DNA of 48,474 nucleotides from an uncultured Bacteroidota bacterium (GTDB lineage: Bacteria > Bacteroidota > Bacteroidia > Chitinophagales > Saprospiraceae): contig CAIVGO010000488.1 of assembly GCA_903905445.1 (NCBI GenBank), positions 1 through 48,474 on the forward strand. Reading direction: 5' to 3'. Shown piece by piece: positions 35,954 to 39,464 of the stretch (positions within the stretch are counted from its first letter, which is position 1; each line of letters opens with the position of its first letter). The position numbers were made by a program, and so were the translations under genes. The notes below the pieces were generated by a model that saw nothing but the letters and a program-made list of their open reading frames with translations, searched no databases and was not told the DNA's origin.

Positions 35954-36400
35954 ATGAACAAACACGACGATTTTTTGCACACCAACCCAGCGGCCACACA
36001 GTTACATATCACCGATGAGGCCGAAGCCTGCGCCGCGGTGCTTTTTGCCTGTCGTCGGGCCGATGAAATTGATGGCGCACGCGGCAATGCTGCGTTTCGT
36101 ACAACGCTGGAAACCCGCAATATTTTTATTGGTTATGATCCGTCGGTGTTAATTGAAACCGTCACGCGATATTTTGAAACGGCGGGCAGTCCGGCGGCGC
36201 TGATCAATGCCGCCATTGGAGCGATTCGCGAACAAACCCGTTTGCCCCTGTTTTATCAATGCCTGGATGTCATTTTAGCCGATGGCGTCGTTACCCCCCG
36301 CGAAGATAAAGTCGTACAATACCTCAAAGGAAAATTTAAAGTCGAAGACGAAATGGTCTTTGAAGCGATGGATGTACTGGTTGTGAAAAATTTGTTGTGA
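35954..36400 (+). CDS. TerB-like protein
   Basis: A 148-residue soluble helical protein. The C-terminal half, LPLFYQCLDVILADGVVTPREDKVVQYLKGKFKVEDE, carries the conserved acidic segment of TerB/DjlA-type domains (ADGxxxxxE). TerB proteins belong to tellurite/stress-response Ter systems and are thought to act as membrane- or metal-linked scaffolds. No other Ter genes are seen at this locus. It lies 293 bases upstream of the TROVE gene on the same strand and may be functionally tied to it, but this is inference. Confidence 0.75.
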   Translation: MNKHDDFLHTNPAATQLHITDEAEACAAVLFACRRADEIDGARGNAAFRTTLETRNIFIGYDPSVLIETVTRYFETAGSPAALINAAIGAIREQTRLPLFYQCLDVILADGVVTPREDKVVQYLKGKFKVEDEMVFEAMDVLVVKNLL

Positions 36401-36550
36401 TTAGAAGCCAGCTATTTCCATAACCACGTTGCGTTAGTATAGCCTCAATAGCGCTAAGTATGATTTTTTATTTTTAAATATTTAATTGATAATCAACGTT
36501 TTAGTTCTTAGTAAAAAAATATTTTCAAAAAATTATCTCAAATTTTTCTA

Positions 36551-36636
36551 CTACGCAAGTCTATTGCGCAGCACCCTCGCCATCTTTGTTTCATCAAACG
36601 AAGCAATTAAGCAGTACATCGTTTAGCGTGATGCTT
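36551..36636 (+). promoter_or_regulatory. Leader of the TROVE gene: hairpin, promoter-like box, second hairpin
   Basis: CTACGCAA-GTCTA-TTGCGCAG (36551-36571) is a near-perfect palindrome just before CATCTTTG (36584-36591), one base away from the TAnnTTTG consensus. Downstream, AAG-CATC (36609-36620) can pair with GATG-CTT (36630-36636), looping out GTTTAGCGT. The first palindrome could be an operator and the second lies in the expected mRNA leader. Confidence 0.4.
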
Positions 36637-36693
36637 GGTTTGTCCTAAATGTTAAAAGTAACCACCAACTCCTCACTCATCACTACTTCACGC

Positions 36694-38220
36694 ATGTTTT
36701 TCAACAAAAAAGTAAAATCGCCAACAAAAACAATCAACCATGCCGGAGCGTCCGCTTATAAAATGACGCCAGCGCAGGAATTGTACGCTGCGGTCGTTAC
36801 GGCTACCTTGAGCGACAAGTTTTATGAAACGGGGAATAAGCGCTTGTTGCGTTTGCGTGCGTTGGTGGCCCAAAATGATCCAATATTTGTAGCCAAACTG
36901 GCCATTTATGCCCGTGAGCGCATGCACTTGCGTTCTGTTCCGCTGGTGTTGGCCATAGAGTTGGCAAAAATACACCGTGGGGATGATCTGTTGAGCCGTT
37001 TGATCGGCCGCGTGATTCAGCGTGCGGATGAAATTACCGAAATGTTGGCTTTTTACGCACAAGCAAATGAGCGCGATGGGGCCAAACAATTGAATCGGTT
37101 GTCGAAGCAGGTACAGAAAGGCATTGTGATGGCTTTCAATAAATTTGATGCGTTCCAATTTGCCAAATATGACCGCGATGGCACTGCTGTAAAATTGCGT
37201 GATGCTTTGTTTTTGACGCACCCGGTGGCAAAAGATGCAGCCCAACAAGCGATCTTTAATCAAATTGCGACGGGTACTTTGGAAACGCCGTACACCTGGG
37301 AAACCGAGTTATCGGCCCTGGGGCAGCAAAAATTTGCTAACGAGGCAGAAAAAAAAGCGGCTTTTCGTGCAAAATGGCAGGAATTGATCGACTCCGGCAA
37401 ATTAGGCTATATGGCCCTGATGCGTAACCTGCGCAATATGCTGGAAGCGCAAATTTCCGGTGCGCACGTGAACAAAGTATGTAAGCAGTTGGCCGATCCG
37501 AAACAGGTAGCGCAATCCAAACAATTGCCTTTCCGATTCCTGGCGGCTTACCGCGAGTTATTTCAAGTAGATTCGCCTAAAACAGCGGCTGTTATGCAGG
37601 CATTGGAAGATGCCGTAATGGCGAGTACCGCGAATTTGCGCGGATTTGATATGGATACGACCGTGGTGGTTGCCTGCGACGTTTCGGGTTCGATGCAAAA
37701 GTCAATTTCGGCTAAAAGCAAGGTATTGAATTATGATATCGGCTTGATGCTGGGGATGTTGTTGAAATCGAAATGCCGGAATGTGATCGCGGGGATGTTT
37801 GGCGATACCTGGAAAGTGATTCAATTGCCAGGACGTAATGTGTTATCGAATGTGCAGGAATTTTACCGTCGTGAAGGAGAAGTTGGGTACAGCACGAATG
37901 GGCATTTGGTGATCGCAGATTTGTTGAAACGCCAGGTTGCAGTGGATAAAGTAATGTTGTTTACCGATTGTCAATTGTGGAACAGCCAGGGAACCAATGA
38001 AACCTTGATGGGGTTATGGATGGACTACCGCAAGAAAGTTGCGCCCGATGCGAAATTGTATTTGTTTGACCTGGCTGGTTTGGGGAATACGCCTTTCGAC
38101 CTGCGTCAAGACCAGGGTGTGGCACTTATTGCGGGATGGTCAGATAAAGTATTTGAAGTACTGGACGCGCTGGAAAACGGCGAAACAGCCGTAGCGCTGA
38201 TTGATGCGATAGAATTATAG
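36694..38220 (+). CDS. rsr: TROVE-vWA protein, bacterial Ro60 orthologue (Rsr)
   Basis: A 508-residue orthologue of the Ro60 autoantigen, a ring-shaped RNA-binding protein that holds Y RNAs and the 3' ends of misfolded RNAs and, in studied bacteria, works with exoribonucleases in rRNA maturation and stress RNA decay. Residues about 20-310 are the HEAT-like TROVE ring, including LGYMALMRNLRNML (238-251). Residues 322-508 are a vWA domain with an intact MIDAS start DVSGS (329-333) and FTDCQLW later. The ATG at 36694 fits the family; 36649 would add 15 residues. Three Y-RNA-like units follow immediately downstream. The neighbours RtcB and RtcA, found with Ro60 in other bacteria, are not here. 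Confidence 0.93.
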   Translation: MFFNKKVKSPTKTINHAGASAYKMTPAQELYAAVVTATLSDKFYETGNKRLLRLRALVAQNDPIFVAKLAIYARERMHLRSVPLVLAIELAKIHRGDDLLSRLIGRVIQRADEITEMLAFYAQANERDGAKQLNRLSKQVQKGIVMAFNKFDAFQFAKYDRDGTAVKLRDALFLTHPVAKDAAQQAIFNQIATGTLETPYTWETELSALGQQKFANEAEKKAAFRAKWQELIDSGKLGYMALMRNLRNMLEAQISGAHVNKVCKQLADPKQVAQSKQLPFRFLAAYRELFQVDSPKTAAVMQALEDAVMASTANLRGFDMDTTVVVACDVSGSMQKSISAKSKVLNYDIGLMLGMLLKSKCRNVIAGMFGDTWKVIQLPGRNVLSNVQEFYRREGEVGYSTNGHLVIADLLKRQVAVDKVMLFTDCQLWNSQGTNETLMGLWMDYRKKVAPDAKLYLFDLAGLGNTPFDLRQDQGVALIAGWSDKVFEVLDALENGETAVALIDAIEL

Positions 38221-38221
38221 A

Positions 38222-38269
38222 CTTTATAGTGCAGGAAGCCGGCGTGGATAGGCCACGCCGGCTATAAAG
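38222..38269 (+). terminator. Strong stem-loop directly after the TROVE stop codon
   Basis: An 11-bp helix AGCCGGCGTGG (38237-38247) with CCACGCCGGCT (38253-38263) and loop ATAGG, extended by CTTTAT/ATAAAG around a 9-base bulge. It begins two bases after the stop. It is followed by A-rich, not T-rich, sequence, so it may protect or process the mRNA rather than terminate it; RNA unit A begins 8 bases later. Confidence 0.6.
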
Positions 38270-38276
38270 AAAAAAA

Positions 38277-38324
38277 GGTGCCGTAATGCAGTGTTACTTC
38301 TACACAAAAAATACACTGCATGCC
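38277..38324 (+). ncRNA. Y-RNA-like unit A (short stem-loop, no tRNA module)
   Basis: The first of three copies of a 24-base motif, GRTGYCGTAR-N7-WTACTTC (here 38277-38300). GGTG at its start can pair with TGCC (38321-38324), and TGCAGTGT (38287-38294) pairs perfectly with ACACTGCA (38313-38320), leaving CCGTAA as an asymmetric 5' bulge. An asymmetric bulge above a short closing helix is the general layout of the Ro60-binding end of Y RNAs. There is no T-arm or D-arm. Expression as a separate RNA is not shown by the sequence; it could be part of the TROVE transcript. Confidence 0.5.
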
Positions 38325-38351
38325 AATTGCCCTTGAAATTTGCCCAAATAA

Positions 38352-38509
38352 AGATGCCGTAGTTAAGCGTTACTTCGGTCTAGTGCAGCCCCGACCAGGG
38401 TTGGGGAAGGAGCAGGTTCGAATCCTGTCACACTGACAATTTTTAATCGAACAAAACAGTGTGTAGCACATGTCATTACAACGTTTAGCGTTATTTGCTC
38501 TTTGCATTT
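38352..38509 (+). ncRNA. YrlA-like Y RNA candidate B with permuted tRNA mimic
   Basis: It opens with motif copy 2 (38353-38376). Closing helix AGATGC (38352-38357) with GCATTT (38504-38509). A hairpin CCCCGAC-CAGG-GTTGGGG (38389-38406) precedes a T-arm GCAGG-TTCGAAT-CCTGT (38412-38428). Directly after it comes the 3' acceptor strand CACACTG (38429-38435), a 21-nt cap, then CAGTGTG (38457-38463), a perfect 7-bp complement, followed by TA (positions 8 and 9 of a tRNA). The D-arm is degenerate: AGCA/TGCT enclosing AACG-TTTAG-CGTT. The order of parts is a tRNA cut open in the anticodon region and sealed at the acceptor, as in YrlA RNAs. Confidence 0.72.
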
Positions 38510-38532
38510 GGGTATTAAAAGTTTGAACAAAT

Positions 38533-38656
38533 GGTGTCGTAGAAAAGAGATACTTCATTCGGATGACGGGGTCGTGGGTTCGAGTCCCACCGCGCTGACG
38601 CAAGTAACATAACTTTCGGCGCGTAGCTCAGACGGTAGAGCACGATATTCTTTTTT
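38533..38656 (+). ncRNA. YrlA-like Y RNA candidate C with permuted tRNA mimic
   Basis: It opens with motif copy 3 (38533-38556). The 5' end GGTGTCGT (38533-38540) pairs with ACGATATT (38642-38649) over 8 bp including G-U pairs, directly before CTTTTTT. A small hairpin TCAT-TCGG-ATGA follows the motif. T-arm GTGGG-TTCGAGT-CCCAC (38574-38590) runs into the 3' acceptor strand CGCGCTG (38591-38597), then a 19-nt cap, then CGGCGCG (38617-38623), complementary over 7 bp with one G-U, then TA and a canonical D-arm GCTC-AGACGGTA-GAGC (38626-38641). There is no anticodon loop. The 124-nt length and layout fit the YrlA class of Y RNA that binds Ro60/Rsr. Confidence 0.8.
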
Positions 38657-38678
38657 CGCTTTTTACCCGTTTGTTTTT

Positions 38679-38715
38679 AAAAAAGCCTCCTTTCGTTTGA
38701 TTGGGGGCTTTTTTT
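38679..38715 (+). terminator. Bidirectional intrinsic terminator after the RNA array
   Basis: AAAAAAGCCTCC (38679-38690) pairs with GGGGGCTTTTTT (38703-38714), a 12-bp stem with one G-U, ending in a run of seven T. It closes the TROVE-Y RNA transcription unit. Confidence 0.9.
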
Positions 38716-38744
38716 GTGAACCAACTTTCCTTGCGTCATGCCCC

Positions 38745-38776
38745 TTGATTTTTACCGAAACCAAACCGTATCTTTG
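38745..38776 (+). promoter_or_regulatory. Promoter of the antitoxin-toxin pair
   Basis: TATCTTTG (38769-38776) with TTG (38745-38747) 21 bases upstream; the antitoxin ATG follows 20 bases later. It shows that the pair is transcribed independently of the terminated RNA array. Confidence 0.6.
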
Positions 38777-38796
38777 TTGCTCATACATTTTGGATT

Positions 38797-39042
38797 ATGA
38801 ATACTAAACTAACATTAAGCCTGGACAAGGCAATTATTGAGCGCGCTAAAATCTACGCAAGGGAACACAATGTAAGTCTCTCCCACTTAATCGAACACCT
38901 TCTGCTTAGAATCATGCCAGATTTTAAGGAGCCTGTGGAGGATAAAACCAGCATTGTAAAGGAGTTGAGCGGGATTATAAACTTAGAAGGCATAGATTAT
39001 AAAGAGGAACAAGCTCAATATTTCGAAGAAAAATACAGATGA
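38797..39042 (+). CDS. Antitoxin, DUF6364/ribbon-helix-helix type
   Basis: An 81-residue small protein. The N-terminal MNTKLTLSLDKAIIERAKIYAREHNVSLSHLIEHLL has the strand-helix-helix look of ribbon-helix-helix (CopG/DUF6364) DNA-binding domains; the acidic tail EEQAQYFEEKYR would wrap the partner toxin. Its stop overlaps the start of the PIN gene by four bases (ATGA), the usual translational coupling of type II toxin-antitoxin pairs. It likely represses its own promoter at 38745-38776. Codon use is more A-rich than in its neighbours, which hints at horizontal gain. Confidence 0.82.
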   Translation: MNTKLTLSLDKAIIERAKIYAREHNVSLSHLIEHLLLRIMPDFKEPVEDKTSIVKELSGIINLEGIDYKEEQAQYFEEKYR

Positions 39043-39464
39043 ATAAGGATACCGTTTTCGTAGACACGAATATTATTTTAGATTGGCTAGGGGAAAGAGC
39101 GCCTTTTTTTAAATTTGCAAAAGCCTTGTTTTTAAAGGCAGAAAAAGGCGAAATTGAGATTTTAATAAGCACAATGAGTTATATTTCTACTGAATATATA
39201 TTACGCAAACAACTAGGCAAAGAGAAAACAATACAAGCCCTAAACAAATTAAGATCAATAAGTACAGTATGCATGTCTGGTGGCGAAGAGATAGACCTTG
39301 CATTAATTTCTGACATGAAGGACTTTGAAGATTCCTTCCAGTATCATACGGCAATTAACAATTCAGCATGTGTAATCATTACCCGGAATTTGAAAGACTT
39401 TATAAATGTGCAGATACCTATAATGAGTGCAGAAGACTACATAAATTCAACTCAAAAAGAATAG
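39039..39464 (+). CDS. vapC: PIN-domain toxin (VapC-like RNase)
   Basis: A 141-residue PIN nuclease. Acidic catalytic residues are in place: D9 in FVDTNIILDWL, E52 in STEYILR, and D98 in DFEDSFQYHTA, with ITRNLKDF (113-120) giving the usual last acidic residue. Many VapC toxins cut tRNA anticodon loops or the 23S rRNA sarcin-ricin loop. It overlaps the antitoxin gene by four bases. The gene lies directly after RNAs that mimic tRNA and a Ro60 homologue; whether this is more than chance is unknown. Base composition is clearly A+T-richer than the housekeeping genes around it. Confidence 0.87.
   Translation: MNKDTVFVDTNIILDWLGERAPFFKFAKALFLKAEKGEIEILISTMSYISTEYILRKQLGKEKTIQALNKLRSISTVCMSGGEEIDLALISDMKDFEDSFQYHTAINNSACVIITRNLKDFINVQIPIMSAEDYINSTQKE

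What the first reader, a model, noticed from the sequence alone, without database searches (positions are those of the whole stretch)
38277..38556. Three tandem copies of a 24-base motif downstream of a Ro60/TROVE gene
Copies at 38277-38300, 38353-38376 and 38533-38556 align without gaps to GRTGYCGTAR-N7-WTACTTC. In each, the first 4-8 bases can pair with a different downstream segment (GGTG/TGCC, AGATGC/GCATTT, GGTGTCGT/ACGATATT), so the closing helix is kept while the sequence changes. Ro60-bound Y RNAs are known to use a short closing helix next to a conserved asymmetric bulge. I infer that the motif is the Ro60-binding end of a small RNA family. I know of no earlier description of this exact motif.
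Basis: partly seen in the sequence, partly recalled or inferred. Interest (0 to 1): 0.92.

Follow-up and report, generated by a model that had tools for sequence, protein, structure and literature searches.

The report
Ro60-bound Y RNA array, tRNA mimics
Next to a bacterial version of the human lupus antigen Ro60 lies a small cluster of RNA genes that appear to share a Ro60-binding stem, and in related bacteria the rest of these RNAs imitates tRNAs, tRNA anticodon arms or a piece of ribosomal RNA, which suggests an unexpected toolkit for handling RNA.

Summary
The motif is real and specific: its core occurs three times in a 5.86-Mb genome, all here. It is the 5' strand of a two-helix stem: closing helix with one bulged U, internal loop CGUA/7 nt, 8-bp helix, then UACUUC. 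258 of 260 copies near 77 of 80 related TROVE genes and in the window fit it, with covariation. A covariance model made without the window finds copy 3 (108.7 bits) and copy 2 (46.6), not copy 1; over 296 genomes its hits of 53 bits or more lie in 21 of 24 TROVE genomes and 0 of 272 others. These are divergent YrlA-type Y RNAs: copy 3 carries a circularly permuted tRNA body, copy 2 a partial one, copy 1 none. New, in relatives: arrays of up to seven copies; exact tRNA anticodon loops on stems in 57 of 342 modules against 5.9 in shuffles; a 23S-rRNA-like module in three copies. Ro60 binding, expression and function are inferred; the key Y RNA papers were not held.

The parts
36649..38220 (+). 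Ro60/TROVE protein (Rsr-like), 523 aa, with C-terminal vWA domain and a DVSGSM motif
   Evidence: Pfam TROVE 4e-29 and vWA_Ro60 9.2e-8; motif seen; profile of it and 12 relatives matches solved Ro60/Rsr chains 9l5y, 9kop, 1yvp, 9nen, 2nvo
38237..38263 (+). 11-bp perfect hairpin between the TROVE stop codon and copy 1; possible processing or stabilising element (inferred)
   Evidence: read from the sequence; L003 has it with one G-C pair changed to G-U
38275..38334 (+). Y RNA copy 1, about 60 nt, minimal: Ro60-type stem capped by a short loop, no tRNA-like module; inner helix 38286-38293 with 38314-38321
   Evidence: structure score 32; MFE fold shows the inner helix and the 7-nt 3' loop, closing with GGU/GCC; L003 keeps the inner helix with two pairs changed to G-U; not found by model R1
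38350..38503 (+). Y RNA copy 2, about 154 nt: Ro60-type stem plus partly tRNA-like module (extra hairpin, T arm 38412-38428, acceptor-like stem 38429-38435 with 38457-38463, no standard D arm)
   Evidence: score 35; R1 46.6 bits, E 1.2e-11; fold of 38347-38496
38529..38672 (+). Y RNA copy 3, about 144 nt: Ro60-type stem plus circularly permuted tRNA body: T arm 38574-38590, acceptor stem 38591-38598 with 38616-38623, D arm 38625-38641
   Evidence: R1 108.7 bits, E 9.9e-30, window and L003 left out of the model; Rfam YrlA RF02553 40 bits, below gathering 69, E 2.5e-7 for the 651 bases searched; fold
38277..38300 (+). motif copy 1 (5' strand of the Ro60-type stem)
   Evidence: exact match
38353..38376 (+). 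motif copy 2
   Evidence: exact match
38533..38556 (+). motif copy 3
   Evidence: exact match
38679..38714 (+). inverted repeat with T run, intrinsic-terminator-like, after the array
   Evidence: the repeat finder I4, 12-nt arms, 92% complementary, 12 nt between; the terminator scan allows loops of 3-8 only and did not list it

Best explanation
The three motif copies are the 5' strands of three small RNAs of the bacterial Y RNA (YrlA-like) kind, encoded just downstream of their Ro60 protein. Shown by comparison: each RNA ends in a stem made of a closing helix with one bulged U, an asymmetric internal loop (CGUA opposite 7 nt whose sixth base is nearly always U) and an 8-bp helix followed by UACUUC; the stem is kept by compensatory changes and occurs with TROVE genes. 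Inferred: Ro60 binds this stem, as it binds the basal stem of known Y RNAs. The other end is the effector module, which differs from copy to copy. In copy 3 it is a tRNA body opened between D arm and anticodon position and closed at the acceptor end (circular permutation), in copy 2 a partial one, in copy 1 almost nothing. Most likely mechanism (inferred): the array is transcribed together, perhaps with the TROVE gene, and cut into single RNAs; the modules present tRNA-like surfaces on Ro60 and tether or gate tRNA-handling enzymes (a PNPase-type exonuclease, RtcB-type ligase, modification enzymes), so that one Ro60 ring serves several RNA-quality-control jobs depending on which Y RNA is bound. 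The confidence given is for the identity as Y RNAs with this stem; for the tethering mechanism it is about 0.45.
For: Genome-wide specificity. 260 strict copies in 78 of 81 loci (77 of 80 relatives plus the window); U at -1 is present in 260 of 260 although not in the search pattern. Both helices form in 258 of 260 at score 22 or more (28% of swapped pairs do) and in 245 of 260 at 28 or more (5.3% of swapped). Held out: 134 of 260 copies had exactly one site for the inner helix alone; the closing helix then pairs at 6.84 of 8 positions against 4.97 (sd 0.08, maximum 5.20 in 1000 swaps), and a 7-nt loop is the best of 3-12. Alignment of 37 of 45 candidate copies, none from the window or L003: RNAalifold returns this fold; 97.5% of cells paired against 69.9% shuffled, covariation score 0.766 against 0.205, slid versions 0.169 or less; all 7 pairs of the acceptor helix, which was not used for selection, have compensatory changes. 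Model R1: 21 of 24 TROVE genomes and 0 of 272 others at 53 bits or more. Of 27 genomes with a motif hit in the class search, the 13 with structurally valid copies all have TROVE and the 14 others have none (7 of the 14 were not fetched for scoring). T arm precedes D arm in 81 of 81 copies with both, and an acceptor-like stem lies between in 69 of 81. Interleaved tRNA genes in some loci and no excess of TAnnTTTG upstream of copies (6 against 6 of 260) fit a processed polycistron. A protein cluster whose tested representative is RtcB occurs in 20 of 81 loci. [quoted passage not shown] YrlA mimics D, T and acceptor arms and tethers PNPase (PMC4726728, PMC8394870, passages); Y RNAs were co-precipitated with Ro60 from Bacteroides thetaiotaomicron (PMC11277228, passages).
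Against: No expression or binding data. Copy 1 has no tRNA-like module, and R1 does not find it. Rfam's YrlA model stays below its gathering score for copy 3 (40 of 69), finds no YrlA at that score in the window plus 13 of the 80 loci and passes it in 1 of 296 genomes. MFE z-scores of the single window RNAs are modest: -2.04, -1.86 (copy 2 cut to 150 nt), -1.47. In the held-out test 29 of 134 copies pair at 5 or fewer of 8 closing positions. 3 of 24 TROVE genomes have no R1 hit of 53 bits or more, and for G283 the hit is two tRNA genes. Partner enzymes are guesses: none of the seven proteins of the window that I tested is RtcB, and the RtcB loci are a minority.
Confidence: 0.9

Rival explanations
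1. Decoys: the RNAs sit on Ro60 as baits for nucleases or toxins that cut tRNA anticodon loops or rRNA, sparing or sensing damage to the real targets, while RtcB repairs cut tRNAs.
For: Exact anticodon loops with stems in 57 of 342 modules, a 23S-like module in three copies, RtcB-type cluster in 20 of 81 loci. PMC7790460 (passages) suggests that YrlA could be a competitive inhibitor of an anticodon nuclease. A PIN-domain gene follows the window array; PIN toxins of the VapC type can cut tRNA or rRNA (recalled).
Against: None of the three window copies has a stem-closed exact anticodon loop. In Salmonella, YrlA fragments were not detected when tRNAs were cut (PMC7790460), so it is at least not a substrate there. 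No nuclease partner was identified.
Confidence: 0.3
2. Circularly permuted tRNA genes: the long copies are processed into working tRNAs, as in some algae and archaea, and the Ro60 link is secondary.
For: T arm before D arm in 81 of 81 copies with both arms; tRNA genes interleave in some loci; permuted tRNA genes exist (PMC3978253 and PMC3218864, seen in the search listing only).
Against: The conserved part is the Ro60-type stem, present also in 28 short copies without a tRNA body. The acceptor strand is followed by NCCA in only 4 of 69 copies. The break is between D arm and anticodon position, not in the anticodon loop.
Confidence: 0.04
3. Ordinary YrlA: nothing beyond known bacterial Y RNAs with a locally divergent basal stem; the anticodon-like arms are relics of tRNA origin without function.
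For: Copy 3 fits RF02553 with E 2.5e-7; R1 also finds canonical-looking YrlA copies in G212 and G231, four of them at 53-65.5 bits. These too have an inner helix followed by UAC before the module. One G212 copy has an Asn-type anticodon-like hairpin, so such arms may be older than this branch.
Against: Asp-type loops recur 17 times, 15 of them with a stem of at least 2 bp, in 8 stem forms, some nested in one another, and make up the module of many short copies, which relics would not explain easily. A 23S-like module is not a tRNA relic.
Confidence: 0.35
4. Chance or a non-RNA role of the motif, such as DNA repeats or protein-binding sites.
For: Short motif; strict hits away from TROVE in the phylum are at chance level.
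Against: Covariation in both helices and the association with TROVE.
Confidence: 0.01

Closest known systems
YrlA, Y RNA-like A (Rfam RF02553; Salmonella, Mycobacterium smegmatis; crystal structure 6CU1)
   Same: Basal stem from the two ends; module of T, acceptor and D arms in circularly permuted order (PMC8394870, PMC11472068, passages); gene beside Rsr/Ro60
   Different: Different basal-stem sequence (UGYCGUAR...WUACUUC), below the Rfam gathering score, long arrays, modules without a tRNA body, and in relatives anticodon arms and a 23S-like module; whether the unread papers describe any of these is not known
Vertebrate Y RNA Ro60-binding site
   Same: Closing helix of about 7-8 bp with a single bulged pyrimidine and an asymmetric loop next to it
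   Different: Bulged C and a 3-nt bulge opposite in vertebrates (PMC4726728); here a bulged U and a CGUA/7-nt internal loop; no sequence homology claimed
rsr-yrlBA-rtcBA RNA repair operon (Salmonella; PMC7790460, passages)
   Same: Ro60 orthologue and Y RNAs with an RtcB-type ligase in 20 of 81 loci
   Different: No RtcB among the seven window proteins tested; WYL-type cluster in 18 and Band_7 cluster in 12 of 81 loci (one representative of each tested); RtcR not looked for
Circularly permuted tRNA genes
   Same: Order 3' half then 5' half
   Different: Ro60-type stem at the break, closed acceptor end, NCCA in only 4 of 69

Membership tests
YrlA (RF02553) | Score at or above the Rfam gathering score (69 bits) | tested here: not met
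   Copy 3 40.0 bits, E 2.5e-7; no YrlA match listed for copies 1 and 2 up to E 10; 1 of 296 genomes passes
YrlA (RF02553) | T, acceptor and D arms in circularly permuted order | tested here: met
   Met by copy 3; partly by copy 2 (T arm and acceptor only); not by copy 1; 81 of 81 copies with both arms have T before D
YrlA (RF02553) | Length 90-150 nt (PMC8394870) | tested here: inconclusive
   From predicted ends: copy 3 144 nt, copy 2 154 nt, copy 1 60 nt; real ends unknown
Bacterial Y RNA (general) | 5' and 3' ends form the basal stem, conserved by covariation | tested here: met
Bacterial Y RNA (general) | Encoded with a Ro60 orthologue | tested here: met
   21 of 24 TROVE genomes and 0 of 272 others; 13 of 13 and 0 of 14
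Bacterial Y RNA (general) | Bound and stabilised by Ro60 | not testable with these tools
   needs pull-down or an in vitro binding test
Vertebrate-type Ro60 site | Seven-bp helix, single bulged C, 3-nt bulge on the opposite strand | tested here: not met
   bulged U and a 4/7 internal loop instead; definition from PMC4726728
Circularly permuted tRNA gene | Mature tRNA with CCA end | tested here: not met
   encoded NCCA after the acceptor strand in 4 of 69 copies; copy 3 has none by sequence; CCA added after transcription cannot be excluded from sequence

The most novel reading that the evidence does not exclude
Across Bacteroidota, Ro60 is supplied with a gallery of interchangeable RNA mimics: one stem for Ro60, and modules that copy whole tRNAs with a chosen anticodon arm (circularly permuted, acceptor end closed), single anticodon arms (Asp loop CUGUCAC above all; also Asn, Lys, Phe, Tyr, Cys, Met, Glu, Pro), and a domain IV piece of 23S rRNA. 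The set works as substrate look-alikes that bring specific tRNA- and rRNA-handling enzymes or nucleases to Ro60, or keep them off their targets. The window array is a small member that has the stem and the tRNA body but no anticodon arm.
Probability: 0.5. Interest if true: 0.88.

Novelty: new variant of a known kind. Interest (0 to 1): 0.78.

Why it matters
What bacterial Ro60-Y RNA particles do is largely open. This family gives a precise consensus for the presumed Ro60 site in a phylum that Rfam's YrlA model nearly misses (over its gathering score in 1 of the 24 TROVE genomes sampled), names cultured relatives with up to seven copies of the RNA, and turns effector modules into testable hypotheses: an anticodon arm or a 23S piece on a Y RNA points to enzymes that read those parts. 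Ro60 RNPs of gut Bacteroides are recognised by lupus antibodies (PMC11277228, passages), so the RNA part of Bacteroidota Ro60 RNPs has medical interest too.

Tried and rejected
Rfam at gathering score: nothing in the window and no YrlA in the window plus 13 of the 80 loci. ARAGORN on the window: no tRNA; several of its tRNA calls in relatives overlap Y RNAs and look false. Promoter per copy (TAnnTTTG): no excess, so independent transcription of each copy is not supported; the sigma-70-type scan of 36400-38800 is at shuffle level. Assigning long modules to a tRNA isotype by BLAST: inconclusive, partly because some reference tRNAs were probably unrecognised Y RNAs; its crude tally of half order was 77 to 74, because hits that begin in the anticodon arm were counted as 5' halves, so the order claim rests on the arm patterns instead. 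7-nt loops as such are not the commonest first hairpin (stem of at least 4 bp: 76 with loop 7, 92 with loop 9), and over whole modules the excess of anticodon-like loops is smaller (61 against 34.5 in shuffles, stem of at least 4 bp); the claim rests on loop sequence at one place. R1 hits below about 52 bits were not counted; many cover only about model positions 30-113, as a pair of tRNA genes would, but only the G283 one was read (two tandem tRNA genes). The 187 reference tRNAs are ARAGORN calls, a few doubtful. Eight of 45 candidate rows were left out of the alignment (37 used). Distances to TROVE and the control sums for searches were counted by hand from the listings.

Full report
What was claimed and what is there. 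Three 24-base copies at 38277, 38353 and 38533 match GRTGYCGTAR-N7-WTACTTC without a mismatch, and the core pattern has no other match in the 5.86-Mb genome. The gene upstream, 36649-38220, is a TROVE/Ro60 protein (Pfam TROVE 4e-29, vWA_Ro60 9.2e-8); a profile of it and 12 relatives matches solved Ro60 and Rsr chains. The nearest relative found is a Saprospiraceae MAG locus, L003, 97% identical in the best protein segment.

The structure. In 80 related TROVE loci (the best 80 of 130 confirmed) plus the window, a slightly wider pattern gave 260 copies in 78 of 81 loci. Every copy has U just before the pattern although the pattern did not ask for it. The 5' strand pairs with a downstream strand in two helices: closing helix, bulged U, G-C, Y-R | CGUA opposite 7 nt | 8-bp inner helix | WUACUU. 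258 of 260 copies reach score 22 against 28% of swapped pairs, 245 reach 28 against 5.3%. Of the 203 copies (score 22 or more) with a 7-nt loop, position 1 and its partner read C-G 128, U-A 63, U-G 9, G-C 2, mismatch 1, and the sixth loop base is U in 203 of 203; 55 others were placed with 6- or 8-nt loops. Because that search used both helices, I repeated it with the inner helix alone: 134 of 260 copies had exactly one site; the closing helix then paired at 6.84 of 8 positions against 4.97 in 1000 swaps (maximum 5.20), with 8 of 8 in 84 of 134 and 5 or fewer in 29 of 134; in this set the sixth loop base is U in 117 of 134 and position 1 pairs in 105 of 134.

Alignment and model. 37 of 45 candidate copies with T and D arms, one per locus, none from the window or L003, gave the same fold by RNAalifold, with changes on both sides in 26 of 32 pairs; the four D-arm pairs do not vary and say nothing. 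The rows were chosen for good helices 1 and 2 and for T and D arms, so the fair test is the acceptor helix: 94.1% of cells paired, 7 of 7 pairs compensatory. The model R1 finds copy 3 with 108.7 bits and copy 2 with 46.6 bits in the window, and nothing else there up to E 10. Over 296 genomes of the phylum, hits of 53 bits or more lie in 21 genomes, all among the 24 with TROVE. The best hits in TROVE-free genomes reach 51.3 bits; many of the weaker hits cover only about model positions 30-113, as a pair of tRNA genes would. The 3 TROVE genomes without a strong hit are G034 (48.1 bits near TROVE), G272 and G283 (47.4 bits, two tRNA genes). At least four of the genomes look like records already among the loci (equal contig lengths); only one of those four, L015, was in the model.

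Linkage by motif alone. The strict pattern had 98 matches in 71 of 296 genomes; by hand count 25 of them lie within 5 kb downstream of TROVE on its strand, in 13 of the 24 TROVE genomes. The other 73 are scattered and no more frequent than the backward control (about 140, hand-summed). In four more TROVE genomes near variants stand close to TROVE: G054 with G in place of W, and G077, G139, G191 with UGYUGUA. In 395 genomes of the class a longer pattern had 60 matches in 32 genomes against 8 for the control. I fetched 20 of these places: 13 have at least one copy scoring 29 or more, and 11 of those show TROVE in the stretch; 7 have no score above 23, and none shows TROVE. Genome-wide, of the 27 genomes not already known to have TROVE, 13 of 13 array genomes and 0 of 14 others have it; seven of those 14 were not fetched or scored. 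In G362 the array is about 26 kb from TROVE, in G614 on another contig.

Effector modules. Of 255 copies scoring 26 or more in the 81 loci, 28 modules are short (32 nt or less), 27 are 33-68 nt, 197 are 69-120 nt and 3 are longer. A T arm is found in 185, a D arm by a strict pattern in 83, both in 81, always T before D; shuffled modules gave 1 T arm in 258. This is the circularly permuted tRNA body known from YrlA (6CU1 against tRNA, PMC11472068, passages). Window copy 3 has it complete, copy 2 lacks a standard D arm, copy 1 has none. The loci hold 1 to 7 such copies. In some loci tRNA genes interleave, for example L030 and L043.

Anticodon arms. In 342 modules (from the 81 loci and the 40 regions), a hairpin right after UACUU with a 7-nt loop and at least 3 bp was found in 170; 63 of these loops fit the anticodon-loop form YUNNNRN against 7.4 in shuffles (maximum 17 of 200). 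Against 90 distinct anticodon loops taken from 187 ARAGORN tRNAs of the same loci, 57 of 342 modules in 43 loci hold an exact loop closed by at least 2 bp (shuffled 5.9, maximum 12; reversed-loop control 12); with at least 3 bp 41 (2.4, maximum 7; control 1). The commonest is CUGUCAC, the Asp loop: 17 occurrences, 15 with a stem of at least 2 bp, in 8 stem forms, some nested. Many of these stand in short copies without a tRNA body. Copies from congeners and a few repeated genomes are included, so independent origins are fewer. None of the three window copies has such a loop.

Ribosomal RNA. Three copies (L028 at 6004, L039 at 6564, L058 at 6623) carry 169-174-nt modules that are alike; 34 nt of the L058 RNA are identical to E. 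coli 23S rRNA; the label domain IV is recalled. For L058 the MFE fold keeps the Ro60-type stem around the module; for the other two it does not.

Neighbours. Clusters whose one tested representative is RtcB (20 of 81 loci), a WYL/WCX regulator (18) or Band_7 (12) recur within 3 kb. The window array itself is followed by a DUF6364/PIN gene pair.

What is known. Y RNAs bind Ro60 through the lower stem (PMC4726728, passages); YrlA mimics D, T and acceptor arms and tethers PNPase (PMC8394870, passages); YrlA was proposed as a possible competitive inhibitor of an anticodon nuclease (PMC7790460, passages); Y RNAs were found with Ro60 of Bacteroides thetaiotaomicron (PMC11277228, passages). I saw no mention of anticodon arms on Y RNAs, rRNA-like modules or long Y RNA arrays in the listings of the searches or in the passages read, but the main papers on bacterial Y RNAs were not held, so novelty of these parts is provisional.

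Verdict. Identity as Y RNAs: very likely. Ro60 binding: likely, inferred. Function of the modules: open; tethering of tRNA-handling enzymes is my first choice, decoys my second.

Noticed in passing
window 38797-39464: DUF6364 and PIN_3 domain gene pair directly after the Y RNA array, of the layout of a VapBC-type toxin-antitoxin pair (recalled); VapC toxins often cut tRNA or rRNA (recalled).
   Followed up: no
window 38237-38263: Perfect 11-bp hairpin between the TROVE stop codon and copy 1, without a T run; nearly the same in L003.
   Followed up: no
L028:6004, L039:6564, L058:6623: Y RNA modules of 169-174 nt that contain a 23S rRNA-like sequence; 34 nt identical to E. coli 23S for L058.
   Followed up: partly
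L024, L026:4593, L035, L055, L068: Modules with a T-arm-like hairpin whose loop reads TGCAAAT instead of TTCRANY.
   Followed up: no
L039:6157, L052:6942, L053:7119, L058:6210, L061:6548, L062:6226, L065:6020: A Chryseobacterium module class with GTGCAATTTCC and a second GTGCATGTCT (or ATGCATGTCT), not tRNA-like by my patterns.
   Followed up: no
L030, L043, L071, L072, L074, L081: Y RNAs interleaved with tRNA genes, often only a few bases apart, as in one processed tRNA operon beside TROVE.
   Followed up: partly
L157 (G212) and L156 (G231): Canonical-looking YrlA arrays (GAAUGC...ACUAC) in other lineages of the phylum; one G212 copy also has a GCA-CUGUUAA-UGC (Asn-type) anticodon-like hairpin.
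   Followed up: partly
81 TROVE loci: Recurrent neighbours besides RtcB: WYL/WCX regulator, Band_7, glyoxalase, microbial PARG, by one tested representative each.
   Followed up: no
L158 (G096) and L161/L135 (G280): Y RNA-like copies in TROVE genomes with different basal-stem sequences, for example GCAGCAAGAA in G280 and GGCAGTGAGG in G096; in G096 they lie on the upstream side of TROVE.
   Followed up: no
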